From contig OZ038462.1 of the NCBI GenBank assembly GCA_964036295.1, positions 17,861,264 to 17,925,263 on the forward strand: a stretch of 64,000 nucleotides of DNA, read 5' to 3'. Shown in pieces: positions 2,807-47,397 of this stretch. The notes under the pieces are model-generated. The model saw only the letters and a list, made by a program, of their open reading frames with translations. It made no database searches and was not told where the DNA came from. Position numbers and translations under genes: made by a program. This DNA comes from Plumapathes pennacea. Lineage: Eukaryota > Cnidaria > Anthozoa > Antipatharia > Myriopathidae. Numbering within the stretch: position 1 is the stretch's first letter; every line of letters begins with the position of its first letter.

Positions 2807-2832
2807 TTAAGATCTCGTATTTACAAATAAGA

Positions 2833-3426
2833 ATGGCAGAAACTGTAAAGGATTACGTTATCAATAATGAGGAGAACGAAACGAAACAAAACGAAAAACC
2901 AAAACCAAAACCAAAAGCGAGGAAGAACGGCGGACCAAAACAAAGTAAAAAGGAAACTGAAATAGATCCAGAAACTCGAGATGAAATATCAAGAAAAAAG
3001 GACATTCTTGCATCAGTCGCTATGTTGGAAGGTTTGGAAGAATATGTGGGAGAAAACTTAAGTGCAGTTGATATTAGAAAGATGAATTATTCTGACTTAG
3101 AATCTTTATTCAAGGTTTACAAAGAAAAAGCTGGACAAGAATTAATGAAAGATGGAATGGGAATTTTCGTTGATGGATTTGTCAAAGTACTTTCGTATTT
3201 ACTTACTTTTGACAACGAAGAATCTTTGAAGAAAGATTTGTTAAATAATAAACAATTAGGAAGAAGAATAGGTAAATATGCGTCTAAACTTTCTGAGGAA
3301 TATGGCGACGTGGTTGCGTTTTTGAAAGTCGGATTAGATGTTGCAAAACACGTTGTAGTTTCAAAAGATGAGAAACTTGAACCTAATGGAGATGACGAGA
3401 AAATTGAAGATAAGAAAAATGAATAA
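2833..3426 (+). CDS. cluster G gene 1, unknown charged protein (197 aa)
   Basis: First gene of the virus-like cluster, starting 23 bp inside the TTAA where copy A inserted. I do not recognise the family. The N-terminal third (residues about 15-60) is a Lys/Pro/Glu-rich, probably disordered segment. Residues about 60-170 look helical, and the C-terminal 25 residues are acidic and lysine-rich. There is no signal peptide or clear membrane segment. An upstream in-frame ATG exists at 2752, but it lies inside the inserted element, so I take the ATG at 2833 (MAETVKDYV). A 22-bp hairpin follows the stop directly. Codon use is AT-rich like its neighbours and unlike the Polinton genes. Confidence 0.7.
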   Translation: MAETVKDYVINNEENETKQNEKPKPKPKARKNGGPKQSKKETEIDPETRDEISRKKDILASVAMLEGLEEYVGENLSAVDIRKMNYSDLESLFKVYKEKAGQELMKDGMGIFVDGFVKVLSYLLTFDNEESLKKDLLNNKQLGRRIGKYASKLSEEYGDVVAFLKVGLDVAKHVVVSKDEKLEPNGDDEKIEDKKNE

Positions 3427-3440
3427 TTTTGTCTCTTGAA

Positions 3441-3495
3441 AATTCTTAAGTTATGTTAGCATCTAATCAAAAAATGCTAACATGACTTAAGAATT
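3441..3495 (+). terminator. 22-bp hairpin after cluster G gene 1
   Basis: The arms 3441-3462 and 3474-3495 are inverted copies with one mismatch, which would be a G-U wobble in RNA, around an 11-nt A-rich loop. It begins 15 nt after the stop of gene 1 and ends before gene 2, as expected of a transcript-end signal. Other hairpins in cluster G also fall at gene ends. The function is inferred. Confidence 0.6.
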
Positions 3496-3508
3496 TACAA
3501 TATATTTG

Positions 3509-3937
3509 ATGAAGATGCCAGAAACTGAAAAAGATTTAGAAAACACTGGGAAAGTTGACCAAATAACAAGTATTCCAAAAGATATGGAATCAAGCCCAAG
3601 CAAAGCAAATAAAGAAAAGAAAAAGGATCCTAAAAAAGTTGCGGCTGGCAAGGCCTTGGCAAAAAAGAACAAAGAAGCAAGGGAGGCGTTGAAAAATAGC
3701 CAGGATAAAGATAAAGATAGTTTGATAAGTCCGCTAAGTTTTTTAGACGTAAATAATGGATTGCAAATGATAGCTGGTTTGATAGGTTCTGTTTTCGTGA
3801 TATATCATGGCTACAAAATTTTTTACCCAACAAAGGAAGAAACAACGGTAGTACATGAAATTGTTGAGACTAATCAAGTGGAAGAACCAGTCAAGGAACC
3901 AAATCAAGAAACCAAGTCAAATATCGATATGGAATGA
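3509..3937 (+). CDS. cluster G gene 2, single-pass membrane protein (142 aa)
   Basis: Unrecognised protein with a Lys-rich, highly charged N-terminal half (residues 1-75), one hydrophobic segment around residues 88-112 (core GLQMIAGLIGSVFVIYHGYK), and an acidic Glu/Thr/Pro-rich tail. This suggests a type of small membrane or virion-envelope protein with a long basic domain on one side. I chose the ATG at 3509, just after the hairpin; 3515 is also possible. It sits in a tight same-strand run, 27 bp before gene 3. Confidence 0.65.
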   Translation: MKMPETEKDLENTGKVDQITSIPKDMESSPSKANKEKKKDPKKVAAGKALAKKNKEAREALKNSQDKDKDSLISPLSFLDVNNGLQMIAGLIGSVFVIYHGYKIFYPTKEETTVVHEIVETNQVEEPVKEPNQETKSNIDME

Positions 3938-3964
3938 TTTAAAGATTAGCGATTCGTGTTTAAT

Positions 3965-4183
3965 ATGAGTAGTGAAAATAAACTCGTTAATAATGCAAAA
4001 GAGGCAGTTGCTTTGGTTGGAATTTCTGCAGCAATTGGTTATGCGGTTAAAAAGGCCTTAAGAAAGGCGGTAACTTCAGATCCTTCCTCTAGTTTGATGA
4101 ATGCGGTTGAGTGGACAGGAGTTATGATTGGCGCAATTTACGCGAGAGATTACCTCGTAGAACAAAAAATTATTCCGACTTAA
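3965..4183 (+). CDS. cluster G gene 3, small membrane protein (72 aa)
   Basis: Short ORF with two moderately hydrophobic segments, AVALVGISAAIGYAV (about residues 13-27) and a second around residues 45-60 containing VMIGAIYARDYL. They are separated by a basic stretch (KKALRKAV). No known family. The start is the ATG at 3965; the frame upstream has only a GTG. Spacing to gene 2 is 27 bp. About 170 bp of AT-rich sequence without an ORF separates it from gene 4 and may hold a promoter. Confidence 0.55.
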   Translation: MSSENKLVNNAKEAVALVGISAAIGYAVKKALRKAVTSDPSSSLMNAVEWTGVMIGAIYARDYLVEQKIIPT

Positions 4184-4356: not shown

Positions 4357-4767
4357 ATGGCAACATTTTTCACCATGGCTATTGGAGCAATATTAAATGC
4401 AGGAACGTTTATTGGAGGCAGTTATTTGGCAACTTTTTTTTCAGGAAAAGATCAAGACGAAGAAAGGAAAAGACACGATTTGGCTATTGAAAAATACGAA
4501 AAAGATTACAACGATTGGAAAGAAAAAATGGGTAAAGTAGAACTTTGGAGAGAACAAAGAGAAAAAGATAAGGAAAATGCATCATATAATTTTAGGAGCA
4601 CAGATGAGGCATTAAAAGCCTATGCAGAAACTCACCCAGACGAAAATTTAAAAGAACCTAATTTCAACGATTATTATTCTCCAAGCAAAGACCAAAAGAA
4701 TGGAGAGATGATATTCACGGGATTGACTGTGGCTGGTTTGGCTTATGGTGTCTCAAAAATATATTGA
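4357..4767 (+). CDS. cluster G gene 4, membrane protein with charged middle (136 aa)
   Basis: Unrecognised. A hydrophobic N-terminus (residues about 3-28, FTMAIGAILNAGTFIGGSY) is followed by a strongly charged helical middle (residues 30-110, many E/K/R/D). A second short hydrophobic stretch lies at the C-terminus (GLTVAGLAYGVSKIY). The Gly/Ala pattern of the hydrophobic parts resembles the other cluster G membrane proteins. The 3' end overlaps the longest possible reading of gene 5 by 23 bp, which suggests compact, virus-like packing. Confidence 0.65.
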   Translation: MATFFTMAIGAILNAGTFIGGSYLATFFSGKDQDEERKRHDLAIEKYEKDYNDWKEKMGKVELWREQREKDKENASYNFRSTDEALKAYAETHPDENLKEPNFNDYYSPSKDQKNGEMIFTGLTVAGLAYGVSKIY

Positions 4768-4795
4768 CTTAACGTTTTCTAATAATGATACGAAA

Positions 4796-5986
4796 ATGGC
4801 AGAAGTAGATCCAGAAAGAAATCCTTTTGGCCCTAGTACTCATGGCGGAGATGGAGATGGTGAAGACATTCCAATGAGACCAACTAATCAAGGTGATAAA
4901 CCTTTGAATCCTTTTCATCACCACGATACACACGATACTAAAAAAAAACCATTTGGTGGTGATTCAGAAACAGATTCATTATTACAAGGACAGCTACCTC
5001 ATACTCCTGGAAATAATCCAGAGACTGGGGATCTCTTAAAAAAGATATGGCGTTATGCTAATTTAAGTAAGTTACATTATGATCAAGATAGAGTTGGGAG
5101 GCATTGGGTCTCGTTGACATCGAAAAATTCTGCAAAATTCTTTATAAACAAAGATGAAACTTTAGATCCTGTAAAACCAGGAAGAGAACCATCCAAAACA
5201 CTACTCAGCGCGTTAGGAAAGACATCGATAGAAATCATGGATGATAAATATAAAAGAATAGAATGGAACAAGGAAAAGGAAAAAGAACTAAGAGAGAAAA
5301 AAGAAAAAAACGACGACTTGAACAGAAAATTGAAGAAACTAAAAGATGAAAACGAATCGTTAATAGATCGTCTTTCGAGAAAAGACGGCAAGATTAAAGT
5401 TCTTGAGAATAATCTGAAAAAGTCAACCTCACCTGAAGAAAAGAAAAAGTTAGAGGAAGAAATAGAAAGACAAAAAGCAGAAGTAACCAAGGCAAGAAAA
5501 GAAAACGAGGCGGCCATAAAACAAAACAAAGAAAGGATTGAGGAGCTTCAAGATGAGTTAAACGAAAACCCAGAAGATCAGGAAATACTTGAACAAATAA
5601 ACGAATTAGAACAAGAAAACGAAAGATTAGGATCAGAAAATGAACAAATTTTCGAGGGGTTAAGTCTCAAAGAAAAAGTTAAATATATCTTCAAGAGGTA
5701 CGGTTTGACAGTTATTAGAGTGCTGACAGCTGTAGGAACCATTATTGGAGTCATTGTTGGAAATCTCAAAGCGGGTTTGACGAAAGTTGCCAAAGGTGTT
5801 GGAGATGGACTTAAAGAAATTGGAAAAAAGTTGGCTGGAATTCTCCCTGGAATGGTTGGAGCAATAGTTAGCTTTTTGTTTAAGGCTGCTGGAGAAGCTA
5901 TCGGTTTTCTCTCGAAACATGCTTGGTTGCTGATTCTTCTCGTCGTCACTTTTGTTGTTGAACAATTTAAGAGCGAATTTTCCTAA
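4796..5986 (+). CDS. cluster G gene 5, coiled-coil multi-pass membrane protein; 3' end replaced by a TTAA element
   Basis: Unrecognised family. An acidic and His-rich N-terminus (contains GGDGDGE and NPFHHHD) is followed by a folded region near residues 95-150. A long charged coiled coil spans about residues 157-285. Gly/Ala-rich hydrophobic helices follow at residues about 302-325 and 346-390. I chose ATG 4796; ATG 4745 is also in frame. The last four codons and the stop lie inside the inserted element, which begins at 5971 after TTAA 5967-5970. On the far side of that element (from 32043) the same frame stays open for six more Lys/Asn codons. It then meets a TAA that overlaps the next gene's ATG by one base. 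The original end was therefore almost certainly there. Confidence 0.75.
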   Translation: MAEVDPERNPFGPSTHGGDGDGEDIPMRPTNQGDKPLNPFHHHDTHDTKKKPFGGDSETDSLLQGQLPHTPGNNPETGDLLKKIWRYANLSKLHYDQDRVGRHWVSLTSKNSAKFFINKDETLDPVKPGREPSKTLLSALGKTSIEIMDDKYKRIEWNKEKEKELREKKEKNDDLNRKLKKLKDENESLIDRLSRKDGKIKVLENNLKKSTSPEEKKKLEEEIERQKAEVTKARKENEAAIKQNKERIEELQDELNENPEDQEILEQINELEQENERLGSENEQIFEGLSLKEKVKYIFKRYGLTVIRVLTAVGTIIGVIVGNLKAGLTKVAKGVGDGLKEIGKKLAGILPGMVGAIVSFLFKAAGEAIGFLSKHAWLLILLVVTFVVEQFKSEFS

Positions 5987-7383
5987 ACACCGGGTGAAAT
6001 GAGAAAAATGTGGCACATCAGTCAAAAATCGGGGTTCTTCATATTTTGTCCAGAGATAGCCTATGGTGTGCCAATTACTCTCGTATACTTATTTTGTTCA
6101 AATTTTTTTGGAGTTTCAAGGAAAAAAAAAAAAGCCGCTACGCCTCAAAATGACTAAAATGAAAGGGATTAGGAGGACCACAAAAGCCTTCGCGCGCGAC
6201 CGTGCAACGAAACTCTACACATAAATGTCTTCATCTATTGATTAAGAAGACATCTACGAGCAATTTGAGCCTATAAGTAGAATTATAGGTCAAATATTGA
6301 ATATCTGGTTTCGGGGCAAAGACAGCCCAAATTTCAATGCTCGCAAATATCAGTTTAGAGCACTTTTTCAAAAAATCATTCCTATGTCCGGTATAACTCA
6401 GATTTGCACACAAATTCGATTGTAATATCTAGAAGTGTTGTTCTTATTTAGAAAATAAAAATTAGTTTGGTACTTTTCATTGCTCGAAAAGACTAACGCG
6501 GCTAATTTTCCCAAATTCACAACGTCCACTTGTAAACAACGTGCAACGATCAATTCACACTTTCGGATAAACTCGAACAAAAACTTCGCCCTCCACCTCA
6601 AACTTGGCACAAAACTCTGTAGGAGACCTTATAATAAGTTAACTTTCAATACCACCGGTTAACGATTGATTTATGTGGTTTTTCCTACCAAAATACCTCT
6701 TCAACTCAGTGGTCGACAAGCGCTAACTGATTGCTTCGCTTTTTTTTTGTTGCCAATTTACGCCTCATTTCGCTTTATTCTGCTACAATATAGCACAAAT
6801 ATGTTTCCAAGGATGTCCCTGTTGCTTTAAGAGCTTTTTCTTGTAAAAAATGAAAGAGTCATGCAGTCAAAATATACGCGCCGACGTCGCCGTGCGTTCG
6901 TTATTGGTGTCACGCAATCTTAAAACTCAGCGAGATATGTTTATTATATTTAGTTACATTGATATCCCTTGTTTGACCCAAAAATATATTAACTTTGTTT
7001 TGTCATTATCGCTACCGGGAATGAAAATGCGACATGAAACTTTATTATTTGGGTATCAAAGTGGCCAAATAATGAAAACAACAGCAACCATAAACTAGAA
7101 TGGTTATGGCCTGAGCAATCAAAACAGCACAAAGGCAAAAGTAACTCTTCTGACTTGACATTGTACTGTACACGTCATTAGGAGCTGCAAGCCAACTATA
7201 TAGAAAATACCCCCCAAAACCTCCCCTCCCCCCTCCTCCCCATACCCAGAAACGGATCCTATATTTTGGTCTTCCCCTCTCGCAATTTTCAATTTTCTCC
7301 AATACATTATTTGTATTTTACACCTTTGAGACTCCACTCCGTCCCAACACAACCCACTGTCTCAATACAATTGTGTCACATTG

Positions 7384-8139
7384 CCAGAAATTCCGGACAT
7401 TTTGCGTCCACGATTGCTTCCGGTCTTTCCCAGCGGCATGCGGTATGAGCATGCGCCATTCACACATTCAACATTGTTACGTACTTTGCCTCAGTGGGGT
7501 GGGGGAGGGATGGGTTTCTCCGGTTCAAAAAGAGACTGCTACGTTTAGGAGACGTGCCGCTGAACGACCTAGTTGAAATTAGCTTTCGTTTGGTGCAATT
7601 TTCATGCGATTTGGAGCTTCCCAGCCCAAAATATCAACATCCGAAGTCAGCGTATTTCACGGGAGGTATTCGCCATGGCTGGCTGTGAACTGCAAATTCA
7701 AACACAAAAAGTACACATCGAATTTGCTCCAGGGGACTGACGGAGGCTTCACAGGAGATGTTCAATCCTTCGACAATCAGGTACGGGGTAGACATTTTGC
7801 GTTTTACCCAAGGTTCTTGTATTAAATGCAGCTTAAAAAGTGACAGTAGCCGGTTTTGAGCGTATTCTGCTATCAATCCCTTCTTACGTCGGCCGAAATT
7901 TTAAATTCAAAAAAGTACACATCGAATTTTACCGAATAAATATTTTTTGTACTGTTGTGTTTAGGAAGCTTCCCTCTTCCGAATGCTGCCCAGACATTTT
8001 TACGAACGTGCTTCAGTTAAGCGAAAAGCGCAATTTATTATCAGATCCCATACATTTCTTTGTTATTTCTTGAGCGGCTGTCAGCGTGAAACCTGATGCC
8101 TCTTCCGAGATGGCGCAACCGGATGTCTGAAATTTCTGG
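7384..8139. mobile_element. 0.75-kb insertion with short terminal inverted repeats (MITE-like)
   Basis: The related copy A lacks this segment between the sequences CAATTGTG and CCGGCTTGGGG. The ends are inverted: CCAGAAATTCCGGACAT at the left against CCAGAAATTTCAGACAT (reverse complement) at the right. Two internal stretches share AAAAAGTACACATCGAATTT. Short ORFs here are not convincing. The target duplication is not clean. Confidence 0.55.
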
Positions 8140-9299
8140 CGATGATAAACCGGCTTGGGGAGAAAAGTGCCCTTCCATTAAATCAATAATCAAAAATCAA
8201 AAATCAAACATTCCGAAAGCGGCAACTTTTAAGTTAAAAACCCTGTATATATGAAAAAAGGCTGGCCCGGGGACCCTATTAGCCTGGGCGCGCCAACTAT
8301 TCATACATTTCTTTATTATACAGTCGAAGCGAGCGTGTACATGGCAAAGTGATTTAAAGTTACTGTAATCTACTTGGAATAAATTAGTTTTAGTATGTAC
8401 CGTAAGCACATGCACTGCAGATAATCTTAAAGTTATATTTTCCGTTGTTCTTTAATTTTTTAATTGGTACAAAGAAGATATGAACTAAGCCAGATCTGGA
8501 AACGAGTTTCCTATCAGAGCAGATAACAAATTATAAAATAAAGACTTGACGCACGTACCCGAACCAGCCGCAACAAATATACCAGTTCGGCGAAGGATTG
8601 TCCTACTAGAGAGCGCTTTGTTGATCCCGCGATCAGCCTTGCGCGATTTCCCCTTCTCACCATGTCTGCATAGGCCCGCTGGAACTCGGCAACGTTGCGA
8701 TCCTTTGCGCCAACCAATTCGCAAAGAAGAGCAGTGTGAAGCGCAAATCGTCAATTTTGATATATCAGACGGCGGATTAAATATCGACGCCCGTGCTAAT
8801 ATCAATTCAACTTCGGTCTCAACATCGCTTATCCCCATCGCCTTTTTGTGCCCCGAAATATTCTTAGTACAGGAAAGAAGGGGAATTGCTGTCGCGTTGC
8901 TTTCTGATACTTTGTTTCGCTTGTCAAGGGCATAATATCCCCCAACCAGTCGCTGAAATGAGCAACTTATCTCCATTACAGACTCGCCTCCACTTCTCAA
9001 TTTGCCAAGTCTGTTTTGAAAAACTAAAACTTTTATGTCACTGCTATTTTTTCCTAACACCTAACGGCAACTGCTTCGACAATCAAAATAGGTATTCATT
9101 TTGGTGTGTCGGGAAAAAGTAAAACGGAAGTTGCCCCACCCGACCCCGCCTTTACGAGTCCTTTCATTTTCTTTCTTTTCCCTCGGCACTGAATAGCAAG
9201 ACAAGACGGCCACTGAATAGAAAGAAAATTACGAAAAAGAACTAAAATGTGAATCTCTGTTAGTGATGTAAATTTGAGAAGAGGTCTTATTAGAGCCAA

Positions 9300-9300
<1 letters not shown>

Positions 9301-9331
<31 letters not shown>

Positions 9332-9332
9332 T
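9301..9332. repeat. (CAA)n microsatellite
   Basis: About ten consecutive CAA triplets within the TTAA element. The matching place in the inverted copy A (about 258-310) is a GTT/T-rich run. Confidence 0.9.
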
Positions 9333-10209
9333 GGGGGTGAATGGGTGTATAAATGCAATATTTGGATGTCATGCGCTTCATGAACAGATGAAACTCTCGA
9401 GAGACAGTCACATAAATAACGATTTCTTGCCAGTTAGGCCAGTAATAAAATGTACACATCACTTCCTTGTCAGTTTCTCATTAAATCTGCGTGCAGTTCA
9501 TTAAGCCGGATCCGGTAAAATAACTCGTTTTGGTAAATAAAGTCAGCTCAATTTGAAATCTAAGTGCCACTAAAAGCTACTGATCTTATCATGTTTTATT
9601 TGTGTATAAAGAAAACAAAATATTTCTTGGCCAGATGCGTATTCATGTATCACTTCAAGTACAAATTCTATTGTTGTTGTTTTCATTATTTGGCCACTTT
9701 GATACCCAAATAATAAAGTTTCATGTCGCATTTTCATTCCCGGTAGCAATAATGACAAAACAAAGTTAATATATTTTTGGGTCAAACAAGGGATATCAAT
9801 GTAACTAAATATAATAAACATATCTCGCTGAGTTTTAAGATTGCGTGACACCAATAACGAACGCACGGCGACGTCGGCGCGTATATTTTGACTGCATGAC
9901 TCTTTCATTTTTTACAAGAAAAAGCTCTTAAAGCAACAGGGACATCCTTGGAAACATATTTGTGCTATATTGTAGCAGAATAAAGCGAAATGAGGCGTAA
10001 ATTGGCAAAGAAAATGAAGCAGTCAGTTAGCGCTTGTCGACCACTGAGTTGAAGAGGTATTTTGATAGGAAAAACCACATAAATCAATCGTTAACCGGTG
10101 GTATTGAAAGTTAAACTTATTATAAGGTCTCCTACAGAGTTTTGTGCCAAGTTTGAGGTGGAGGGCGAAGTTTTTGTTCGAGTTTATCCGAAAGTATGAA
10201 TTGATCGTT

Positions 10210-10605
10210 AGTAGTTTGGTCTGACCAATTCGGACAAAATGCCTCGCTTTCATGTTATGTAAATATAGGCATTAGCATTCAAGGTGACGTGTCTAGGTAA
10301 TCGATATGCATAGATTATTATGGGTAAATTTTAAAGATTTAAATATTAATTTAGTTAGGGATAATTTTGGCGCCAAATTGGTTGGCGCGTTCGATACGTA
10401 ATATCTTGCGTTTCTAAGGTCAACATGTGGTTTCTAGGTAACCAGTTGGGACAGATTGCCTCGCTTTCATGTTATGATTGATTGATCAATTTGAGATGCA
10501 GGGTATTTATGGGACGGGTACCGTGGGGGAAATTGAAATGAAAATGCACAACAAAGTGATATTGAAAAAAATTTTAATGAACAAAGATATGTGTTATGAA
10601 ATTTT
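10210..10605 (+). repeat. Polinton left terminal inverted repeat (~396 bp)
   Basis: Pairs with 31073-31467 in inverted orientation with few differences, which suggests a fairly recent insertion. It contains the repeated motif GCCTCGCTTTCATGTTATG twice (about 10240 and 10460). The short ORF at 10478-10666 lies mostly within it and is not a gene. Confidence 0.95.
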
Positions 10606-10628
10606 CCAATTTGATATTGATGACATTC

Positions 10629-11950
10629 TTAATTTAAGAGAGAATCAAGAATGTCGTCAATATTAAATTCGGAAGATGAAAACTGCGACGGTTCCGACCA
10701 TTCTGTCAACTGCGACGGAGGGCAATAACATTCTGTAGATGGAATGGTGCTGTTGAGGAAAAGAAAGATTGGTTGTGAATGATTTGTTTAAACTGTGTAT
10801 ACGGCTTTGAGAACAAAAGTCAAGTGAAACAGAAAAAAACATTCAAGATTACTTGTGAAATAATTTGTTGAAACTGTGTATACGGCTTTGAGAACAAAAG
10901 TCAAGCGAAACAAAAGAACAATCAAGATTGATTAACTTACCTCTCCGCAATGCTGGATGACGCCGTTGGCGTATGGTGTTGTGGTATGGTGCTGTTGAGG
11001 AAAAAAAGAAAGATATTTTGTGAATGATTTGTTTAAACTGTGTATACGGCTTTGAGAACAAAGTCAAGTGAAACAGAAAAAACATTCAAGATTGCTTGTG
11101 AAATAATTTGTTGAAACTGTGTATACGGCTTTGAGAACAAAAGTCAAGCGAAACAAAAGAACAATCAAGATTGATTAACTTACCTCTCCGCAATGCTGGA
11201 TGACGCCGTTGGCGTATGGTGTTGTGGTATGGTGCTGTTGAGGAAAAAAGAAAGATATTTTGTGAATGATTTGTTTAAACTGTGTATACGGCTTTGAGAA
11301 CAAAGTCAAGTGAAACAGAAAAAACATTCAAGATTGCTTGTGAATAATTTGTTGAAACTGTGTATACGGCTTTGAGAACAAAAGTCAAGCGAAACGAAAG
11401 AACAATCAAGATTGATTAACTTACCTCTCCGCAATGCTGGATGACGCCGTTGGCGTATGGTGTTGTGGTATGGTACTGTTGAGGAAAAAAGAAAGATATT
11501 TTGTGAATGATTTGTTTAAACTGTGTATACGGCTTTGAGAACAAAGTCAAGTGAAACAGAAAAAACATTCAAGATTGCTTGTGAAATAATTTGTTGAAAC
11601 TGTGTATACGGCTTTGAGAACAAAGTCAAGTGAAACAGAAAAAACATTCAAGATTGCTTGTTAACTTACCTGCCTGCATCGGGACAATTACTATCCCCGT
11701 CTTCCATGTCGTCGTCATCGTCTTCTGGTTCAGGTCCGCCCAACCCGCACATGATTACGGTTATCATATTACATATGGAATTATGTAATGGAATGTCCTT
11801 CTCTTGTGGGGTCAGTTTCTTCATGTCGCTTAGCACGACAGATAACTTTTGACGGAGTGTCTCCGTTTCATCTCGAACCGGGATCGGTTCTTCGCCGATG
11901 CGTTTTATCAATTCTTCGATTGCAGTGATATTCTCGTTGAACAGAGGCAT
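10629..11950 (-). CDS. spliced Polinton gene with three tandem 51-bp micro-exons (~184 aa)
   Basis: Model on the minus strand: exon 1 11950-11670 (ATG start, 93 codons plus 2 nt), exons 2-4 11475-11425, 11234-11184 and 10991-10941 (each exactly 51 bp), and exon 5 10749-10629 (TAA stop). Every intron begins GTAAGT and ends CAACAG, and all junctions are phase 2, so the whole chain stays open. Exon 1 encodes a helical acidic region ending in a Glu/Asp block. Each micro-exon encodes the same 17 residues (core STIPQHHTPTASSSIAE). The C-terminus is Ser/acidic with IDDILDSLL. I recognise no family; an acidic regulatory or adaptor protein is possible. It lies just inside the left TIR and is divergent from the next gene across the 45-bp array. 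Confidence 0.7.
10740..11655. repeat. ~241-bp tandem repeat carrying the micro-exons
   Basis: About 3.8 copies with 241-242 bp spacing (the marker GTTGAGG recurs at 10754, 10996, 11237 and 11479). Each full unit contains one 51-bp exon with its splice sites plus two copies of an intronic sub-repeat (CTGTGTATACGGCTTTGAGA). Exon number in the gene therefore depends on repeat copy number. Confidence 0.9.
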
Positions 11951-12181
11951 GTTGATGAGCTTTTTTCACGTTTGCGAACAAAAGATTAAAGTGAAAATAC
12001 GCGCAGCTTTGCTAATATTTTTATAGCTGTAAAATTCATTAGTTTTAATTATTACATGATTCTTTCTTAAATTTGCTTATCAAAAGGCTTGTCAGTAGTA
12101 ACTAGGAAGAACAGGCCATTGTATGCGTTTGAGCTATGATTGTTGGCGTTTAATTGCGTTTTGCTGGAATTGAAGCTGCCA

Positions 12182-12592: not shown

Positions 12593-12680
12593 TAGGATAC
12601 ATATATGAGTGATACGGAAACTGAGAGGTTTCAAAAATTGTACGAAGTCGAAAGAAAGGAAGGAGTTAATCAATTACAAT

Positions 12681-25181: not shown

Positions 25182-25186
25182 AAATC

Positions 25187-36847: not shown

Positions 36848-39387
36848 TCAGTGTGAGTTTGACTCATGGCCATGCTCAGGTAGCCAAACCAGCATGATAA
36901 ACTCGTGCCGGAAGATTTCCTGCCATCTGTGCTGGTAAGTGGTATTACCACTTAGCCTGTGAAGGGCAATATGCTTTGCTTCCCTCCCTTCCATTGTGAC
37001 AGTCATCAGGCCCTGCTGATATGTATCATATACATACCTAGCATGAACCGGAAGAACATGTCCCAAAGTCCAAATTGTAGGGTTTACAGAAGTGGGCAGG
37101 AATAAGGCATTTGCACGGTAGTAATCTTTGGCTAAAGATACAAGTTTAACTAAATCTGATTCCTGGACCTCAAATCTATTGAAAATAGAGCAACAGTCAC
37201 GAAGTTTCAATCCCACATAGGACAGAACCAGGACAGTTTGCTTCTGTTTCTGGCTGTCTTCTTCATGGCTCAAGTACTTTATGAGCCTCATGAAGTTGTG
37301 ACAAAACAATCTGGAGTCCTTACCCGTGAAACTGTACTGCAGATCCCCCTGCTTTCCCTGAGTTTCATCAAACCACTTCTTAACTTTCCTAGCAAGGCAT
37401 TTTGCTTTAACCTCATATTGAAGTGCAGAAACAACTCTTGCAAAACAGGTATCCCTTGGGATATCTTCAAATGTCTTGCATGCTGGAGGAAGCTTAGTTT
37501 TCCCAACTGCTTCCTTTAGTAGGGACTTGAAAAAATATTGCCATGCATTATTTTTCAAATGTAGGGGTTCTACATGTCCTTTATCGATTAGTTTCCCAAC
37601 AAGAGGAACAAATTCCTGGCGACTCTTACTCCTAGCAATAAATTCTGTAACCTTAGACCTTTTGCATTTGTCTGAAATAGGTTTTGCTTTGGTACTTAAA
37701 GAGGCTTTAAATTTGTCTACATCTAAAGCTACTTTAATTCTATGATCAAACGACCAAGGCCTCCACTTACATGTACTATCATAGCCAAAGGAACCCTGCA
37801 AGTCAGTGCAATCCCTTTCACTTACATTTGCAAAGGTAGAAAAGTAGGTTGCAGCATTGCTCAACTCTCCACCAAGCATTGCCAACATTTTCATGTCATT
37901 TGGTAATTCTTGAAATTGAAATGTAACATGTATACCATCAATTTCAATGACTTTGCCCTCTAAATCTGCCATCTGCCTACACACTGCCTGGACGTACTTC
38001 TTAACTACAAGGGAGGTTTCCTCAACATTGCCACCAAAAACTAAAAAATTGTCACTACTGGAGGCCACTCGCCTCCCAGCATTGAGGAAGCTAACCAGGA
38101 AAGAGCATGCAGTGTCATTTTTGCCAAAAGGGCAGCCATCCCCCCCAAAGGCAACAAGAAATGTTCCCTCTGTCTTCCCAAACCACTTTAAGGTATCCTT
38201 ACGGCTTTTGACTCTAATGTAAAAAGAAGCTAACCTAGGTAAATACTCTCGTAGGTCCCGGAAGCACCCACTTACATTTTCCTCCTCAATGTATTGACCA
38301 AAATGATCTTCAATACATAGCACTGTTCCAACAGGAATCTTTTTGATCTCCTGTGAGAGCACATTATAAGAAACCAACTTAGGTATGGGGCAATTTGGCA
38401 TGAATTTAATTGCAATTTTACTTGAACCCTGCTTCTTATTACTTAGCTTCATTGTTGATGCAGTCCGCACAGCTTGATATTTTCGTTTACCCTTGACCCC
38501 TGCAGTGTAATATGTGGCAATACTTCTCAACACATTGTCATGTGAATTTTCAAAAGCCACCCTTTCCTGATTCTGCTTTTTCTTAAGGATGTAATCTGTT
38601 AGCTTCTTGTTAGACAAAACATAATCTCCAAGAATATCTGTTTTACATTTCTTACTTAGGGTGTCAAAAAGCCCATCAATAGCAGGCCTTTTATTAGACT
38701 TAGTTGCACCATGGATAGCTGAAGCTGCATTGAACGTCTCATGTCGTCTCCTAGTTAATGTCCTTTCTGAACTTCCTTCTGCAGCAGTAGAAGTTGGGGG
38801 TCTTGCCTGCCTCTTAGCCTAGGATAATTATAAGAAGTGTCAATTACACATTAGTGATTCCAGCAGTGCCTGGCCACTACATTGAAGGATTACAATATTA
38901 CCAACAGGAAATGTCAACTATAATGTCAATACGTACTTTAGGTTGGCTTCTGAGTACTTGGAGATCTTCACATAATATTTTGGAGGCCTCTTTTGTGTCA
39001 ATAATCTGAAATAAGTTAGGGATTCATATAAGGCTTAGTATGTAAAATAACTTCATAAATTACAGTTTTGAACAAGATTTACGCACTTTTATATCCTTAT
39101 AAATGTTCTCCACCCTGAAGTCTGGCACATTTCTATTGTTGTGTCGCCTAGTTATGATTATTTAATACCGGAAGAATACAGCACTTGCAGTAAAGCATGA
39201 TCAGAAATTAATTAAATATTATTATAAATCGTATCATGCGGTTCACCTTCTTCTTCAGTTTCCAAATCTTCTTCTGCTCAACTTGAAGTTCATGTTTCTC
39301 CTTAGCCTTTTGAATCTCAGCTTCTGTCTTAGCTTTCATATAAATCCCAACTGGGAAGCGGTTGTACGTTTTCTTTTTATTTGGCAT
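36848..39387 (-). CDS. spliced transposase-like gene of the CACTA-like element (~726 aa)
   Basis: Exons on the minus strand, all phase 0: 39387-39247 (ATG, 47 codons, Lys-rich, donor GTGAAC), 39005-38937 (23 codons, donor GTACGT) and 38818-36848 (acceptor TCCTAG). The last exon holds a conserved core: DGIHVTFQFQELPNDMKMLA, MLGGELSNAATYFSTFANVS, KRSKVTEFIARSKSRQEFVP, GHVEPLHLKNNAW and the C-terminal MEGREAKHIALHRLSGN, FRHEFIMLVWL. I recall this family as transposon-linked in corals and sponges; the catalytic triad is not identified, though GHVEPLH and EIDGIH contain candidate acids. The gene is intact, so the element may be recent. Confidence 0.65.
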
Positions 39388-39918
39388 CGTGCTTGCTGCT
39401 GCATGTCTTACCGTGGCACCTAAAAATATGGATATAAGAGCATCATATCAGTTGCATTTTCCATCTCAAAGAGCACAATATTCCGAAAATGAAAAACATA
39501 CGATTCTTACCGGGGAATCACAGCATACGACAGTCATCGCCTCGGTCCAGAAGACCTCAGGGTAAAAAAGTTTATTGAAGCCGACGTTAGGTCATTTCCG
39601 ACTCTTCCCAAGACGACGCCATTTTCCAGAGAAACGGTTCGACCACCAGGAGACACAGTTTAACCTTTCTAGTGCATGTTTGGTATCAAAATTTAGCTTG
39701 TAAAACGCACTACTTGAATATTTAAGCTTCGACTTTTCCCGCTCTATCCCACAAGCGCTAGCGATCATTATTTATAGGCTCTTAAATTAGTTACCAGTCT
39801 CCTAATAAAAAACACGGATACGGACGCCATTTTATTTCCCCATTGTTTGGCCGGAAATCGGAGGCTCCTGGCCCGGCGTGAATTACTTTTTCAAAATTGA
39901 CATTCTCTAAATTTCGCG

Positions 39919-40066
39919 GTGTCCGACGCGTCGGACACTTGATGATTCTCAAGTTTCTAATACTTTAAATTCCATATGCCCGATACATAGGGCATTTAAT
40001 AATTCTCAAGTTTTTCTAAAATCACGTATCACTATAATTTAATTCATAACAAAGTGGTTATGAATT
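39919..40066. terminator. series of three hairpins in the convergent region of cluster G
   Basis: GTGTCCGACGCGTCGGACAC (39919-39938, perfect), ATGCCC/GGGCAT with an 8-nt loop (39976-39995), and AATTCATAAC/GTTATGAATT with a 6-nt loop (40041-40066). The first two are each followed by ATTCTCAAGTTT. Stem sequences differ, but pairing is kept. They lie between the 3' ends of rightward gene 8 and the leftward small ORF. Confidence 0.65.
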
Positions 40067-42191
40067 ATTTAGTAAAGCAAACCTGCCGTCCTTAATTACA
40101 CTATACTTTGAAGTATGTTTCGAAACACTCAATCATTTCGTCGTCTAAATATTCCATAATGTTAGAAAAAACCTTCTCTGCTTTCGTTTCATCACGATAA
40201 AGAAAATCAAAATTAAATACGTTAAAAATTTCAACAATATCACATATTATGTCATCATCTTCTAAAATCTTATTATTAAAATAAACCTCGTTAATCTCTT
40301 TAATCACTCTCTCCTTAAGAGCGAGTTCGTGTAAATATCACCTACGCCGTGCAGGGTAGAAAAATCAAAATTATCCAAACTTTGTCATAATGAAGGCTTA
40401 ATGTATCTAGTTATAAAAATATAAGTTTTAGTTCGTTCAGTTTCTTATTTCATTTTTGCGACAACAGTTCCTTCCCGGTGCTCTGCGAGAAGACAAAATC
40501 GACCTAAAAATAATGCTTCCATTATCGGCTCTAATGGAAAAACTGGGATATAAACATAACAGCTTAAATTATGGCATGCGAGTGGGGTCTTTCCCGTATG
40601 CATAACCGTTGTCAAATGTAAATTTGATTGAAACCAAACTTTTTGACCGATTTTTTAGCATTAACCACTTTGAGCGACGTTTTCTCACGCGAAAAATATG
40701 CTAATTTCATCAGCAAAAATCGCGTCCTGGTACATGGTTTTGCAATTAAAGACTATGTTCATCGGCAAAAGCAATGTTTCTTTTGTGATTCTGTGAAATA
40801 AAATCATGGGGTAAATGAAATGGTGAATTTTGGAAACGCCAAGTATACATGGTACTTGCACCCAAAATGTGACCTTGCGACCTTTGAAGACGCGTGACAT
40901 TCGAAAACAATAACAATACGTGACCGCAGCATGTTTTGGATTTTATGAAATCGTTGTACGAATATCGCCTAGATTTAATGTAGAATTGCCAAAAGAGTGT
41001 TCAGCTGAAGATGAGACGGCAATTTCGCCCGAAAATGTTCTTTCTTTGATTTGACGATTTGGTGGTTCAAGTTTACAAAAGAAACTTGCATTTGTAACGC
41101 TTGGAATTAAAGTTATCTCTTATTTGATTTTGAATGAATAAACGGAAAGGGCCGATGTATCTGTTTTTTATGTAGGTCTTTCTCACCTCAAAAAGGACAA
41201 AATTCGAGATTTACCGTATTAGAAAAAATGCTTGATCAACTGCACGTGTCGATTTCATTTTATCGTTTTAGAAAACACCGGTATCCCCGACTATTAGTTA
41301 TTTTGGTTCTATTTTCTGCCGAAAAATTTGTAGCTTTACAACTGTGTATTAACTGTCAACCATATGTAATAGGATCACGTTCCGTGCAGTCACGTCCCAT
41401 CTTAAGATTCGTGTTACGTCATCAATTTTATCTTTGTTTCCATTTATTACCGTATAAGGATTGTATTCTCTATTCATCTAGTTCGGAAACGCCTAGGAAA
41501 TGCCTATGATATTTTGTAATGTTCGTAATCAATAGCCCTATTATTCTGTATGTTATATCTATCCGTGCATCATTCGATTAGTTCAGAGTTAGACTTGGGT
41601 ATTCCCTCTGTAAAGCCATTTTGCAGAAGCTCGGGAATAAAGTATCTGCCATCTGCCCATTATTTGACAACATCGACGGGCTTAAGTCAGTGGTGGTCTT
41701 TCCGAAGCACCATGGCTTCGTGTGGGTATTCTCGAATTGTTGGAGGACCTTGTGGCTCAAGTCCAGGCAATCCAGCAATTTCCCAATGCGTGATTGTTGG
41801 TGAGTACCGTAAAGATATCAAGGCGCATTTAAAAAGCCATGAAGTTCTGGACTCTTCCCTGGATTAAGAGGCGAGGCTCTTGCTGGCACGGGCAGGTAAA
41901 TTATATATTTTTGATTCTACGATTTCCGTTACCCTGGGCCCCACTTGTTCAAAGCTCAGTTAGGTTAATCCTGAATTCGAAATGTTCCCGTTTTGAGCGT
42001 GCAACGCATCTTATGATTACTGTACTTTTTTTTCCAAGGTATATTTGAGACAAGCGACGTTGTTCTTGTTGTCACGATATGCCCACGGCACCACGACACA
42101 TTTGGCATTAGATGGCGCTGCAACAGAAGGAATTGCACGTGCCCGAGTGAGTGGGCATCGCACAAGGCCGTGAAAGGATACCGCGGGATTA

Positions 42192-43505
42192 GATAGTGAC
42201 TAAAAGAACACACGAGTGACCACGAGTGACCACGAGTGACCACGAGTGACCACGAGTGACTACGAGTGACCACGAGTATAAGGCATAAGTCAAAATAAGC
42301 TCCTCATGTGACTGTGACGTCATTTTAATATCATTTAAATATAAAATGTAAAACCACTCGTTCGTGAAGTGTAAAACAAAATCTTTGAAGAAAACGCCGA
42401 CCACAAGGCGTAAAGAATAAATAGCGTGACAGTGACGTCATTACCTACTCACTGCAGAACAGGCTACAAACGACCAGGGCCCAGTTGTTCAAAGAGCGGA
42501 TAGCGCTATTCACAGGAGAAATTCTTATCCAGTTGATACTATAAGGCTAAATTTTAACACTTATCCACTATTCACACTTTGAACAACTGGCCCCAAGAGT
42601 TAAATTAAGTCCTTCGCGTGACTGTGACATCAATTTTATTTATATGCTGTTTTAAACATAAGCTGTAATATGACTGGCTTATCGGGTGTCCCCGAGTCTG
42701 AAAAGTTTTACTAAATACAATCTACTGCCGGGACTTTGCTGTGCAGCATTTGGTAGTGATTCAGAATCATCACTTTCGGCGTCTGACTGCAGCACCTTTC
42801 TCACGTTTCTGTTCAGTTACTGAAATTCTGTTCTTCCGCCGGTTCCCTATTTACTTTCCACGTCGCCGATAGTAATAAGCTCCACGTCCTTCACTCCAGT
42901 GTTAGGTCTTTTCGTTGTCTTACTCCCGGGTCTTACTTTGGTCGTACTTTTTCGGAGTAAAATCTTTCCGTTTTTTTATCCGGACTTCCATGGCAAGAGG
43001 AACAGAAATGCAAATTTTTTTGACATCTCAGCAGCCTTATCTCTGCGATCAGCCAATCATATGTAGGTTTCCACGCCATGTGAATTTAGTGAGCAATTCC
43101 CACGACTTAATTAAAAGAGCCAAATCTGTTCGGTAGGGTCACGAGTTTGAGTTAAATACAGCACGCTGTGTCACGTTGTCTACAGCCGACGCTGACACGT
43201 GATTCGTCACGCAAGGGACATATTTGTGTGTGCCTTGTGGTCGGCGTTTTCTTCAAAGTGTTTGTTTTTTAAAATGACGCTAGTGAAATTTTTACACTTT
43301 ATCATGGGTGCATGATATTGCGTTTTAAATTTAAAATGACAATAAAATGACGTTACAGTCACGTGAGGAGCTTATTTTGACTCGTAGTCATTCGTGGTCA
43401 CTCGTGGTCATTCGTGGTCATTCGTGGTCACTCGTGGTCACTCGTGGTCATTCGTGGTCACTCGTGGTCATTCGTGGTCACTCGTGTGTTCTTTTAGTCA
43501 CTATC
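42192..43505. mobile_element. fold-back element with 9-bp TSD, nested in the palindrome
   Basis: Ends are GATAGTGACTAAAAGAACAC and its inverse, flanked by the direct repeat GCGGGATTA (42183-42191 and 43506-43514). Just inside are 10-bp tandem arrays (CGAGTGACCA at about 42210-42285; its inverse at about 43380-43490). A 9-bp TSD is typical of MULE-type elements. No transposase. Confidence 0.75.
42475..42594. mobile_element. ~120-bp MITE
   Basis: A short inverted-repeat unit starts CAGGGCCCAGTTGTTCAAAG and ends CTTTGAACAACTGGCCCC. A relative of its end occurs at about 41937 (GGGCCCCACTTGTTCAAAG). This would be the innermost layer of the nest. Confidence 0.6.
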
Positions 43506-46153
43506 GCGGGATTAACCTTGCTCAGTCTGAAAGACTCTTCCGGCTAACTCAAGTGCTGATCCCTGTCGCTTCACGTAAGTTTAATTCAAAGCAGCAAGGC
43601 AGCTGTCAGCTTGCGAATTTGAAAAAAGTAGTTTAGCGGGAGTAGGTATTAAAGTCATTAACACTGAGGGTGATCACCGCCAGAGGTTTGGTTGCGTCCT
43701 CAGACTGTTCAAGTGAAATGATATTATGGAATGAAAGTATGGAAATCCTTTAATATATATTCAACCAGTATAACCTCTGAACCGAAAACTAAATTGAACA
43801 TTCTCAAGAGTGAGGGGATTTTTGCAGCAGTCATAATACTGGGAAGTATATTCACTTGTTTTCATTATAATCTTAATTGAAAATAATATTTTGAATAGTG
43901 AATTTTAATAATAACTTTAAATTTAATTTTAACTTTTTAAAAAAAGTTTGTCAATACTCAATCACTTTTTAGCTCGCAGATTTAAAAATTTTAAAATGTG
44001 ACCTTAAAATAGTCCGAATATTATATGTGTAATATTATTATGGCATAATACCTACTCCCGCAAAACTACTTTTTTCAAATTCGCAAGCTGACAGCTGCCT
44101 TGCTGCTTTGAATTAAACTTACGTGAAGCGACAGGGATCAGCACTTGAGTTAGCCGGAAGAGTCTTTCAGACTGAGCAAGGTTAATCCCGCGGTATCCTT
44201 TCACGGCCTTGTGCGATGCCCACTCACTCGGGCACGTGCTTTTTTTTCAAATGTGTCACATTTAAAATGTGTCGTGGTGCCGTGGGCATATCGTGACAAC
44301 AAGAACAACGTCGCTTGTCTCAAATATACCTTGGAAAAAAAAGTACAGTAATCATAAGATGCGTTGCACGCTCAAAATGGGAACATTTCGAATTCAGGAT
44401 TAACCTAACTGAGCTTTGAACAAGTGGGCCCAGGGTAACGGAAATCGTAGAATCAAAAATATATAATTTACCTGCCCGTGCCAGCAAGAGCCTCGCCTCT
44501 TAATCCAGGGAAGAGTCCAGAACTTCATGGCTTTTTAAATGCGCCTTGATATCTTTACGGTACTCACCAACAATCACGCATTGGGAAATTGCTGGATTGC
44601 CTGGACTTGAGCCACAAGGTCCTCCAACAATTCGAGAATACCCACACGAAGCCATGGTGCTTCGGAAAGACCACCACTGACTTAAACCCGTCGATGTTGT
44701 CAAATAATGGGCAGATGGCAGATACTTTATTCCCGAGCTTCTGCAAAATGGCTTTACAGAGGGAATACCCAAGTCTAACTCTGAACTAATCGAATGATGC
44801 ACGGATAGATATAACATACAGAATAATAGGGCTATTGATTACGAACATTACAAAATATCATAGGCATTTCCTAGGCGTTTCCGAACTAGATGAATAGAGA
44901 ATACAATCCTTATACGGTAATAAATGGAAACAAAGATAAAATTGATGACGTAACACGAATCTTAAGATGGGACGTGACTGCACGGAACGTGATCCTATTA
45001 CATATGGTTGACAGTTAATACACAGTTGTAAAGCTACAAATTTTTCGACAGAAAATGGAACCAAAATAACTGATAGTCGGGGATACCGGTGCTTTCTAAA
45101 ACGATAAAATGAAATCGACACGTGCAGTTGATCAAGCATTTTTTCTAATACGGCAAATCTTGAGTTTCATCCTTTTTGAGGTGAGAAAGACCTACATAAA
45201 AAAACAGATACATCGGCCCTTTCCGTTTATTCATTCAAAATCAAATAAGAGATAACTTTAATTCCAAGCGTTACTGACAAATGCAAGTTTCTTTGTAAAC
45301 TTGAACCACCAAATTGTCAAATCAAAGAAAGAACATTTTCGGGCGAAATTGCCGTCTCATCTTCAGCTGAACACTCTTTTGGCAATTCTACATTAAATCT
45401 AGGCAATATTTGTACAACGATTTCATAAAATCCAAAAAATGCTGCGGTCACGTATTGTTATTGTTTTCGAATGTCACGCGTCTTCAAAGGTCACAAGGTC
45501 ACATTTTGGGTGCAAGTACCATGTATACTTGGCGTTTCCAAAATTCACCATTTCATTTACCCCATGATTTTATTTCACAGAATCACAGAAGGAACATTGC
45601 TTTTGCCGATGAACATAGTCTTTAATTGCAAAACCATGTACCAGGACGCGATTTTTGCTGATGAAATTAGCATATTTTTCGCGTGAGAAAACGTCGCTCA
45701 AAGTGGTTAATGCTAAAAAATCGGTCAAAAAGTTTGGTTTCAATCAAATTTACATTTGACAACGGTTATGCATACGGGAAAGACCCCACTCGCATGCCAT
45801 AATTTAAGCTGTTATGTTTATATCCCAGTTTTTCCATTAGAGCCGATAATGGAAGCATTATTTTTAGGTCGATTTTGTCTTCTCGCAGAGCACCGGGAAG
45901 GAACTGTTGCCGCAAAAATGAAATAAGAAACTGAACGAACTAAAACTTATATTTTTATAACTAGATACATTAAGCCTTCATCATGACAAAGTTTGGATAA
46001 TTTTGATTTTTCTACCCTGCACGGCGTAGGTGATGTTTACACGAACTCGCTCTTAATAACCTCAAGTTCTAAAGTCTCAAGTTTTTCACTCATCCTACTC
46101 ATTTAATCAAATTCTTTTAAGCCATTTTTATGTAAAATCAATTTTTTTTCAGC

Positions 46154-46792
46154 TTAATTTTCATCTTCGCTTTCGCTAAGTAAAATTTCCTCGGGGACTT
46201 CACTAATCCTTTTAAACTTTGACACTGGGTCAACAGTTGCTTCCGTCAAACTAACCTGTAAATACGCATTTTTTGAGTTGTCAAAAACGGAATCAATCTT
46301 TATCTTTACGTCAACGTCATAAGGTTGGTTCAACATATAATCAGCAGTTAAACGTTTTCTATCTGGGCCATAGAAATTACAAAATACTCTCTTATTGTAA
46401 TACCCAACTTTAAGAAACATCACTGGACTCTCGCCCGGCTCAATTTTCAAGGGATTAAACTTAGTAAAATCAACCTCGTCTTTTTCACCTATTTTCTTGA
46501 CATGCGCTTCTATGTAATTAATAATTTCGTTAAACTTGTCAATCCATTTCAAATCTTCATCAGTGTATATAAAAGTTATTGGAAAATATAAGCGATTTAT
46601 TTTACCGTAATCGTCTAAAACTTTTCTTAAACCTAACGTCGTTGTTTCTTTATCTAAAATTATTGGTCTACTTTTTCCGTTGGCATTTTCCGTGTAAACT
46701 TTCATAATGTAAAATTCTTCGCCCTTCTTGTTCTTCTTTGTCTCAAATTCAGTAAATCTTAAATCTTCAGTTTTCAGGTCTTTAATTTTCAT
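46154..46792 (-). CDS. cluster G gene 10, soluble protein, possibly nucleic-acid binding (212 aa)
   Basis: ATG at 46792. Lys-rich, beta-rich protein without membrane segments, ending in an acidic tail (EEILLSESEDEN). The C-terminal half (FLKVGYYNKRVFCNFYG, then VDVKIKIDSVFDN, AYLQVSLTEATV) alternates hydrophobic strands with basic and aromatic residues, and the acidic tail recalls single-strand DNA-binding proteins with OB folds. This is a suggestion from pattern only. It is leftward, with gene 11 upstream and the split gene 9 downstream. Confidence 0.65.
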   Translation of the reverse strand: MKIKDLKTEDLRFTEFETKKNKKGEEFYIMKVYTENANGKSRPIILDKETTTLGLRKVLDDYGKINRLYFPITFIYTDEDLKWIDKFNEIINYIEAHVKKIGEKDEVDFTKFNPLKIEPGESPVMFLKVGYYNKRVFCNFYGPDRKRLTADYMLNQPYDVDVKIKIDSVFDNSKNAYLQVSLTEATVDPVSKFKRISEVPEEILLSESEDEN

Positions 46793-46869
46793 ATCTATAT
46801 CTTTATAAAATACAAAACTTTAAGTAAAAAAAATTATAACCAAGTTAGTTATAAATTTCATAATAATTT

Positions 46870-47190
46870 TCAAAGATTAATAATGTTTTTATTATTTTCT
46901 TTATCATTTTCTTCTTTACAAATTTTGCAGCTATACTTATGCTTGTCATGTATACAAAAACCTTTACCTCCACAATCTCTACAATAAAATTTCCTTCTAC
47001 CATGTGCACAAAACAAACTTCCAAAACATTCCCTACAAGATTGTTTACATTTGTTATGTATGCAAATTTGAGACCCCTTGCAAAGCTTACAAATGTATTT
47101 AAACTTTCTATGAATACAAAAATAGTCTTTATTACTCTTCTTCGCATTAACAGGTTCATCCATAATGTTATCTCTAACGTTATTTGTCAT
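46870..47190 (-). CDS. cluster G gene 11, four C-x-H-x6-C-x2-C repeats (106 aa)
   Basis: ATG at 47190 (or 47160). Four repeats of exactly 18 residues carry C-x-H-x6-C-x2-C (CIHRKFKYICKLC, CIHNKCKQSCREC, CAHGRRKFYCRDC, CIHDKHKYSCKIC), each a likely zinc-binding unit. From memory, similar Cys-His repeat proteins occur in large DNA viruses and some protists; I cannot confirm homology here. The N-terminus is acidic/Asn-rich. Leftward, 78 bp upstream of gene 10. Confidence 0.7.
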   Translation of the reverse strand: MTNNVRDNIMDEPVNAKKSNKDYFCIHRKFKYICKLCKGSQICIHNKCKQSCRECFGSLFCAHGRRKFYCRDCGGKGFCIHDKHKYSCKICKEENDKENNKNIINL

Positions 47191-47266
47191 ATTTAACTAA
47201 AATTGTTTAGCCTTTAGACTAAAAAATCAATTTTTTTATGGGGCCTAAATTTTCTGAAACACTTCT

Positions 47267-47370
47267 TAATCCCGAAATTGGAATATCCGAAATCGCGATA
47301 TTCGAAATCGGAATATCGAGTATCGCGATAGTCGATATCGTAATTTCGGGTATCGCGATAGTCGTTGTTC
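47267..47370. repeat. 30-bp repeats centred on TATCGCGATA
   Basis: The palindrome AATCGCGATA/TATCGCGATA recurs at 47291, 47321 and 47351, exactly 30 bp apart, surrounded by related ATATCG/CGAAAT words. It lies upstream of the leftward genes and just before the host-side TTAA element fragment. It could be a promoter, an origin or the end of cluster G. Confidence 0.6.
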
Positions 47371-47397
47371 CAGAACCCCCCCTTATTAACTACTAAC

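What the first reader, a model, noticed from the sequence alone, without database searches (positions are those of the whole stretch)
2811..47397. A fragmented, apparently undescribed virus-like gene cluster ('cluster G') under the repeats
Four separated pieces (2811-5970, 32043-35075, 39884-40318, 46057-47397; about 8 kb together) form one compact block: eight rightward genes and three leftward genes with almost no spacing. It has several small Gly/Ala-rich membrane proteins, a PPAY-tailed membrane protein, a Cys-His repeat protein, a candidate nucleic-acid-binding protein, and hairpins at gene ends. It has no introns, unlike the Polinton accessory genes here. I match none of it to Polinton, herpes-like, parvo-like or retroelement gene sets. 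Direct observation: gene layout, motifs, contiguity. Inference: viral origin.
Basis: partly seen in the sequence, partly recalled or inferred. Interest (0 to 1): 0.9.

Follow-up and report, generated by a model that had tools for sequence, protein, structure and literature searches.

The report
Broken right half of a Polinton
The "new virus cluster" is the right-hand half of an integrated virus-like element of the Polinton/Maverick kind, split by jumping genes; it carries poorly described genes, including one that seems to use a reading-frame slip to add a tail resembling the motifs viruses use to recruit the cell's membrane-cutting machinery.

Summary
It is not an unknown virus class. In six other genomic copies the same order lies beside the same capsid-like gene; in one, annotated in full, an A32-type ATPase and a retroviral-type integrase follow. 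For the window's own copy, capsid-like and ATPase genes lie 1.2-3.1 kb left of the window start, behind one inserted element. The right end (47394) has a Polinton-like ...CTACT. So cluster G is the right half of a high-copy, capsid-divergent Polinton. The seven genes tested show purifying selection. New details: g8, a large family without a Pfam domain; a DUF2738-like protein; a covarying hairpin; and, in g7, an in-register A AAA AAC before a -1-frame tail ending P[ST]APPxY. Database homologues end in either frame. Frameshifting and a budding or entry role are inferred; no stimulatory RNA structure was found. The smallest leftward ORF was absent from the six copies. Polymerase, protease and left terminus were not seen.

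The parts
1..2810 (.). Right part of inserted TTAA-target element 1 (starts about 1.2 kb left of the window); separates the capsid/ATPase half from g1
   Evidence: TTAA at L045 1968-1971 and at window 2807-2810
2833..3426 (+). g1, 197 aa, charged, no family
   Evidence: 63-76% id in the six copies
3453..3483 (+). hairpin between g1 and g2 (10-bp perfect core, longer imperfect stem); at least 10 bp also in B, C, D and F, not in A and E
   Evidence: -19.2 kcal/mol
3509..3937 (+). g2, 142 aa, one moderately hydrophobic stretch
3965..4183 (+). g3, 72 aa, Gly/Ala-rich
4357..4767 (+). g4, 136 aa; most constrained gene tested (dN/dS 0.05-0.13); 150 genomic matches, fragments included
4745..5986 (+). 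g5, coiled coil plus hydrophobic C-terminal region; element sequence ends at the TTAA 5967-5970
5971..32038 (.). Inserted TTAA-target element 2, itself carrying the nested Polinton 10210-31467 (ATCGTT duplication, AGTAG...CTACT ends)
32061..32453 (+). g6, 130 aa; two or three related copies in tandem in the six other elements
32479..33102 (+). g7, 207 aa membrane protein (0 frame)
32967..33233 (+). -1-frame ORF without ATG, ending RLEPSAPPAYENVI (PSAP and PPxY overlapping)
32997..33003 (+). A AAA AAC heptamer in the register required for -1 frameshifting
33240..33265 (+). hairpin before g8, kept by changes on both sides between copies
33265..34962 (+). g8, 565 aa, conserved family without a Pfam domain; 898 homologues among 8000 scored candidates, 85 genomic matches
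35076..39880 (.). Inserted DNA element with TIR CACGCCGGGCCAG, possible AAT duplication
40040..40067 (.). 11-bp hairpin in the convergent gap, present at the corresponding place in all six copies
40101..40318 (-). 3' part of the smallest leftward ORF (5' part 46057-46102); not found in other copies
40319..46052 (.). Inserted TTAA-target element 3 with long terminal inverted repeats
46154..46792 (-). DUF2738-like protein, 212 aa; ssDNA-binding role recalled and inferred
   Evidence: (E 3.3e-4, below the curated cut-off)
46870..47190 (-). Cys/His-repeat protein, 106 aa, probably zinc-binding (inferred)
47191..47394 (.). Right terminal region ending ...AACTACT; next 6 bp AACGTA = candidate target duplication, unproved; host DNA here is another TTAA-type element

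Best explanation
Cluster G is the right-hand half of an endogenous Polinton/Maverick (adintovirus-like dsDNA virus) of a lineage with a divergent capsid-like protein. Order, from the window copy and copy A together: [left end and polymerase, not seen] - integrase (leftward) - capsid-like protein - A32-type packaging ATPase - g1 to g8 (rightward) - DUF2738-like and Cys/His genes (leftward) - right terminus ...CTACT. I read g1-g8 as the late virion module (membrane and core proteins, with g8 a conserved structural or assembly protein) and the leftward genes as replication accessories (ssDNA binding, zinc-finger regulator). g7 most likely makes two products: most ribosomes terminate in frame 0, some slip -1 at A AAA AAC and add a tail ending P[ST]APPxY. 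That tail would recruit Tsg101/ESCRT and NEDD4-type ligases, for budding or, as shown for adenovirus protein VI, for entry. Shown: anatomy, hallmark neighbours, copy number, selection, heptamer and frames. Inferred: particles, slippage in cells, protein roles. The confidence given is for the Polinton identity; for the frameshift I give about 0.6, for the ESCRT/NEDD4 role about 0.45.
For: Hallmark genes directly upstream in copy A: A32 ATPase (PF04665, 9.2e-16), integrase core (PF00665, 3e-8), capsid (PF16903, 0.0032, below cut-off). The capsid-like gene is found upstream in all six copies by profile, whose left flanks align at 71-97%. The window copy's own capsid-like ORF (79% id) and ATPase ORF, both intact, lie left of the window; the ATPase ends at the TTAA insertion about 1.2 kb away. 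Gene order kept in 6 of 10 neighbourhoods; co-location far above control. Right homology of the window copy, A and C ends at the same ...CTACT followed by different DNA, like the nested Polinton's ends. dN/dS 0.05-0.50 in seven genes. Frameshift: A AAA AAC in register in 5 of 7 copies (W, A, B, D, E; A and B are near-identical), F has 7 A, C a 10-A run. -1 tails contain PSAPPAY (W), PSAPPPY (A, B), PTAPPAY (C), PSAPPEY (D). Of 100 g7 matches that I took as crossing the slip, 72 overlap a tail match: 56 in -1, 13 same frame, 3 in +1. Homologues P0200, P0202 and P0203 end in frame 0; P0201 is one ORF whose C-terminus matches the window's -1 frame (E 9e-10). P0202 and P0203 (g7) list longest contigs of the same length as P0001 (g8; 20,335) and P0121 (MCP; 23,921), suggesting shared contigs.
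Against: PolB was not seen: the 96-aa stretch that I read by eye as a PolB C-terminus matches neither Pfam nor the nested Polinton's polymerase, and the family search did not complete. No protease or penton was recognised. The left end and its target duplication were not read. ATPase and integrase were named in copy A only, besides the ATPase left of the window. The capsid match is below its cut-off, with no significant similarity to the nested MCP. Right ends of B, D, E and F did not align to the terminus. For the frameshift: no stable RNA follows the heptamer (z +2.0 and +0.25); other in-register heptamers occur in the same A-rich gene; copies that are homologous without indels share the phase anyway, so the 56 of 72 show only that the run length is kept; 28 of 100 g7 matches had no tail match; C needs a different shift; E and F have lost the motif's frame; codon-phase counts are too few to decide.
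Confidence: 0.93

Rival explanations
1. An independent, undescribed virus unrelated to Polintons that merely inserted next to or recombined with Polintons in this genome.
For: Most of the proteins have no family; the capsid-like protein is not alignable to the nested Polinton's.
Against: The same neighbourhood with the capsid-like gene recurs in six copies and in the window's own; a shared right terminus in three.
Confidence: 0.04
2. A satellite-like or virophage-like element that uses a larger virus's transcription machinery: hairpins would serve as transcript ends, as in mimiviruses, and the DUF2738-like gene would come from large DNA viruses (the last point recalled).
For: A hairpin kept by changes on both sides before g8 and hairpins after g1 and in the convergent gap; mimivirus mRNAs are polyadenylated at hairpins not conserved in sequence (PMC4402537, passages).
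Against: By energy only 1 of 11 gene ends examined (g1) exceeds the 5th percentile of coding background; the g8 hairpin overlaps the g8 start, so it could act on translation; no transcript data.
Confidence: 0.12
3. The g7 tail is joined by splicing, or by transcriptional slippage at the A run, rather than by ribosomal frameshifting; or g7 was one ORF and most copies carry an inherited one-base loss.
For: 13 of 72 overlapping pairs are in one frame; copy F has 7 A; no RNA structure; P0201 is a single ORF.
Against: The frame-0 C-terminus is itself conserved in homologues elsewhere (P0203 by alignment; P0202 by eye), which one ancestral loss would not give.
Confidence: 0.35

Closest known systems
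Polinton/Maverick elements (hallmarks as listed in PMC11071308 and PMC4028283, passages read; end sequences recalled)
   Same: Packaging ATPase, capsid-like protein, retroviral-type integrase, ...CTACT terminus, multi-copy integration
   Different: Capsid-like protein not similar to the nested Polinton's; the right half carries g1-g8, a DUF2738-like and a Cys/His gene; penton and protease not recognised; polymerase not seen
Cnidarian Polinton capsid lineages (Bellas 2023, PMC10120064, passages read)
   Same: That paper states that cnidarian MCPs were the only metazoan ones outside the main Maverick-Polinton cluster
Meldvirus Meld23486 (Buck 2024 preprint, PMC11071296, passages read)
   Same: Adintovirus-like replication genes with virion proteins of another type; the same paper predicts -1 slippery sites in some adintovirus penton genes
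Adenovirus protein VI PPxY motif (PMC2841620, abstract read); filovirus VP40 overlapping PTAP/PPxY (recalled)
   Same: Virion protein with a PPxY or overlapping PTAP/PPxY motif
   Different: No homology claimed; here the motif lies behind a putative frameshift

Membership tests
Polinton/Maverick | FtsK/A32-type packaging ATPase | tested here: met
   PF04665 9.2e-16 in copy A; closely related intact ORF left of the window (dN 0.042 to copy A)
Polinton/Maverick | Retroviral-type integrase | tested here: met
   PF00665 3e-8 in copy A; 30% identity to the nested Polinton's integrase, pairwise E 4e-13. Not read in the window's own copy
[quoted passage not shown]
   PF16903 0.0032, below its cut-off; 79 homologues among 3087 candidates, one fused to an A32 ATPase; structure prediction switched off
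[quoted passage not shown]
   Only 96 aa seen, no Pfam hit, no match to the nested PolB; genome search unanswered
Polinton/Maverick | Terminal inverted repeats with AGT...ACT ends and 6-bp target duplication (recalled) | tested here: inconclusive
   Right end ...CTACT in 3 copies; left end not read, so the AACGTA duplication is unproved
Polinton/Maverick | Ulp1-type protease and minor capsid protein (penton) | tested here: inconclusive
   None recognised in the part seen; the region left of L026 was not seen
-1 programmed ribosomal frameshift | In-register heptamer plus conserved -1 ORF | tested here: met
   5 of 7 copies; -1 in 56 of 72 overlapping pairs, a phase that indel-free homology also predicts
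-1 programmed ribosomal frameshift | Downstream stimulatory RNA structure | tested here: not met
   z +2.0 (80 nt) and +0.25 (120 nt); pseudoknots not modelled
DUF2738 proteins | Match to PF10927 at the curated cut-off | tested here: not met
   20.3 bits against 23

The most novel reading that the evidence does not exclude
A widespread animal Polinton lineage builds membrane-bearing particles with a virion module unlike that of adintoviruses, and doses an ESCRT/NEDD4-recruiting P[ST]APPxY tail onto a membrane protein by -1 frameshifting: a regulated budding (or entry) switch that I did not find described for these elements in two library searches.
Probability: 0.3. Interest if true: 0.78.

Novelty: new variant of a known kind. 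Interest (0 to 1): 0.52.

Why it matters
Whether Polintons make particles, and of what kind, is open (recalled). This lineage has 85-153 matches per gene in one genome, fragments included, with purifying selection in the genes tested, and ties hallmark genes to an almost unannotated virion module whose g8 family is large in databases. The g7 tail gives a concrete, testable link between an animal Polinton and host membrane-scission or ubiquitin machinery.

Tried and rejected
Independent virus class: rejected by the hallmark neighbours. IMG/VR for g8 and MCP, single and profile: no relatives. PDB by sequence: none for MCP, one chance-level hit for g8 (E 1.1). PHROGs and NCBIfam: coiled-coil or weak hits. 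Cys/His protein as a Pfam EsV-1-7 member (recalled idea): no Pfam match. g1-g8 beside every DUF2738-like gene: not so in four of ten neighbourhoods, where they were absent or fragmentary or belonged to a neighbouring copy. AAUAAA scan: sites near a few ends only. In one search the DUF2738-like rows for C, E and F were read on the wrong strand and are dropped (12 of 15 pairs); W-A, W-D and A-D stand. g2, g3, g5, g6 and the Cys/His gene were not tested for selection. My first frame count (40 of 60) used rows that I had chosen for lying near each other; one search replaces it.
Full report
What is there. The four pieces exist with the stated boundaries. Three insertions have TTAA duplications and AGAGCGA-type ends; the second carries a nested Polinton at 10210-31467 (AGTAG...CTACT, duplication ATCGTT). 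A fourth insertion (35076-39880) has another TIR. The pieces hold g1-g8 rightward and, leftward, a small ORF, a DUF2738-like gene and a Cys/His-repeat gene.

It is multi-copy and ordered. In this genome the DUF2738-like protein has 153 matches, g7 152, g4 150, MCP 108 and g8 85 (fragments included, and lower bounds because only the best candidates are scored). I fetched ten neighbourhoods. In six (A-F) g1-g8, DUF2738-like and Cys/His genes occur in the window's order; in the other four only part does (L042 holds the start of a second copy). The smallest leftward ORF matched none of the 20 stretches.

It is a Polinton half. Homology between the six copies continues left of g1, 71-97% over at least 1.9 kb. 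A capsid profile finds the capsid-like gene there in all six. In copy A, annotated in full, that DNA encodes an A32 ATPase, a 412-aa capsid-like protein and an integrase. A search with that capsid protein hit C1:17858152-17859381, just left of the window. The 3.2 kb fetched there hold an intact 410-aa capsid-like ORF and an intact 219-aa ATPase ORF that ends in TTAA, followed by an inserted element that runs to window 2810. On the right, homology of the window copy, A and C stops at ...CTACT followed by unrelated DNA; the other four did not align that far. Co-location of MCP, g4 and DUF2738-like matches is far above control. The capsid-like protein has no significant similarity to the nested Polinton's, the ATPase a weak one (E 5e-4), the integrase 30% identity. 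Bellas et al. (PMC10120064, passages) report cnidarian MCPs outside the main Maverick-Polinton cluster; Buck et al. (PMC11071296, passages) describe adintovirus-like replication genes with other virion genes. Polymerase, protease, penton and left end were not seen.

The genes look functional and virus-like. dN/dS is 0.13-0.26 (MCP), 0.12 (ATPase, one pair), 0.11-0.26 (g8), 0.05-0.13 (g4), 0.19-0.50 (g1), 0.19-0.34 (g7 before the slip), 0.20-0.22 (DUF2738-like, three pairs). Synonymous distance between the window copy and copy D is 0.20 in MCP, 0.94 in g1, 0.64 in g4, 0.21 in g7 and 0.21 in the DUF2738-like gene, which suggests recombination between lineages. g8 has 898 homologues among 8000 scored candidates; of the 120 listed, three are 68-69% identical and the rest 41-52%. 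It has no Pfam, NCBIfam or usable PDB match.

g7 and its tail. g7 (207 aa) has a hydrophobic segment at residues 81-110. Overlapping its end in the -1 frame is an ORF ending RLEPSAPPAYENVI; it has no ATG in W, A, B and D, and in C two, before the slip. At 32997 lies A AAA AAC in the register needed for -1 slippage; it is kept in W, A, B, D and E of seven copies (A and B nearly identical); F has 7 A and C a 10-A run. Tails of A, B, C and D also hold P[ST]APPxY; E and F have lost the frame. Genome-wide, of 100 g7 matches taken as crossing the slip, 72 overlap a tail match: 56 in -1, 13 in the same frame, 3 in +1; 28 have none. Homologous DNA without indels shares the phase anyway, so this shows only that the run length is mostly kept. 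The stronger evidence is from the database: of six g7 homologues, P0200, P0202 and P0203 end in frame 0, P0201 is one ORF ending in the tail, and P0204 and P0205 are fragments. So both C-termini are conserved, as a slip site predicts. Against it: no RNA structure follows, other heptamers occur nearby, and there are no expression data. PPxY in adenovirus protein VI recruits Nedd4 ligases in entry (PMC2841620, abstract), so budding is not the only reading. Buck et al. already predict -1 slippage in some adintovirus penton genes. A search for Polinton with ribosomal frameshift listed two papers, that one and PMC12567637, which I did not open; for late-domain and Polinton terms, none of the 20 papers listed of 118 held both kinds.

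Hairpins. Perfect hairpins of at least 10 bp occur three times in the window pieces against a mean of 0.25 in 20 base shuffles. The one before g8 is in all seven copies and keeps pairing by changes on both sides at 4 of 12 pairs among 4 distinct sequences; 1 of 500 shuffles reaches its covariation score, but 71 of 500 its number of such pairs, and I had picked the segments because they pair. By folding energy only 1 of 11 gene ends (g1) exceeds the 5th percentile of coding background.

Verdict.

Noticed in passing
G000:C9:9094349-9358339: Array-like cluster of capsid-gene fragments (many about 286 aa), often about 4.1 kb apart.
   Followed up: no
window 35076-39880: DNA element with TIR CACGCCGGGCCAG and two ORFs (234 and 589 aa) without a Pfam match at 0.01.
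   Followed up: partly
window 49034-50260: ORF with a weak rhodopsin-type receptor match (PF00001, 2.5e-6, below cut-off).
   Followed up: no
window 10210-31467: Apparently complete second Polinton (both ends, PolB PF03175 1.6e-38) nested in a TTAA element that is itself inserted in cluster G's Polinton.
   Followed up: partly
copies in L025-L036 and window: Synonymous distances between the same two copies differ strongly by gene, suggesting recombination among lineages; g6 is duplicated in the other copies.
   Followed up: partly
L037, L039, L044: Divergent DUF2738-like neighbourhoods carry other ORFs where g1-g8 would be expected, with fragments of g8 in L044.
   Followed up: no
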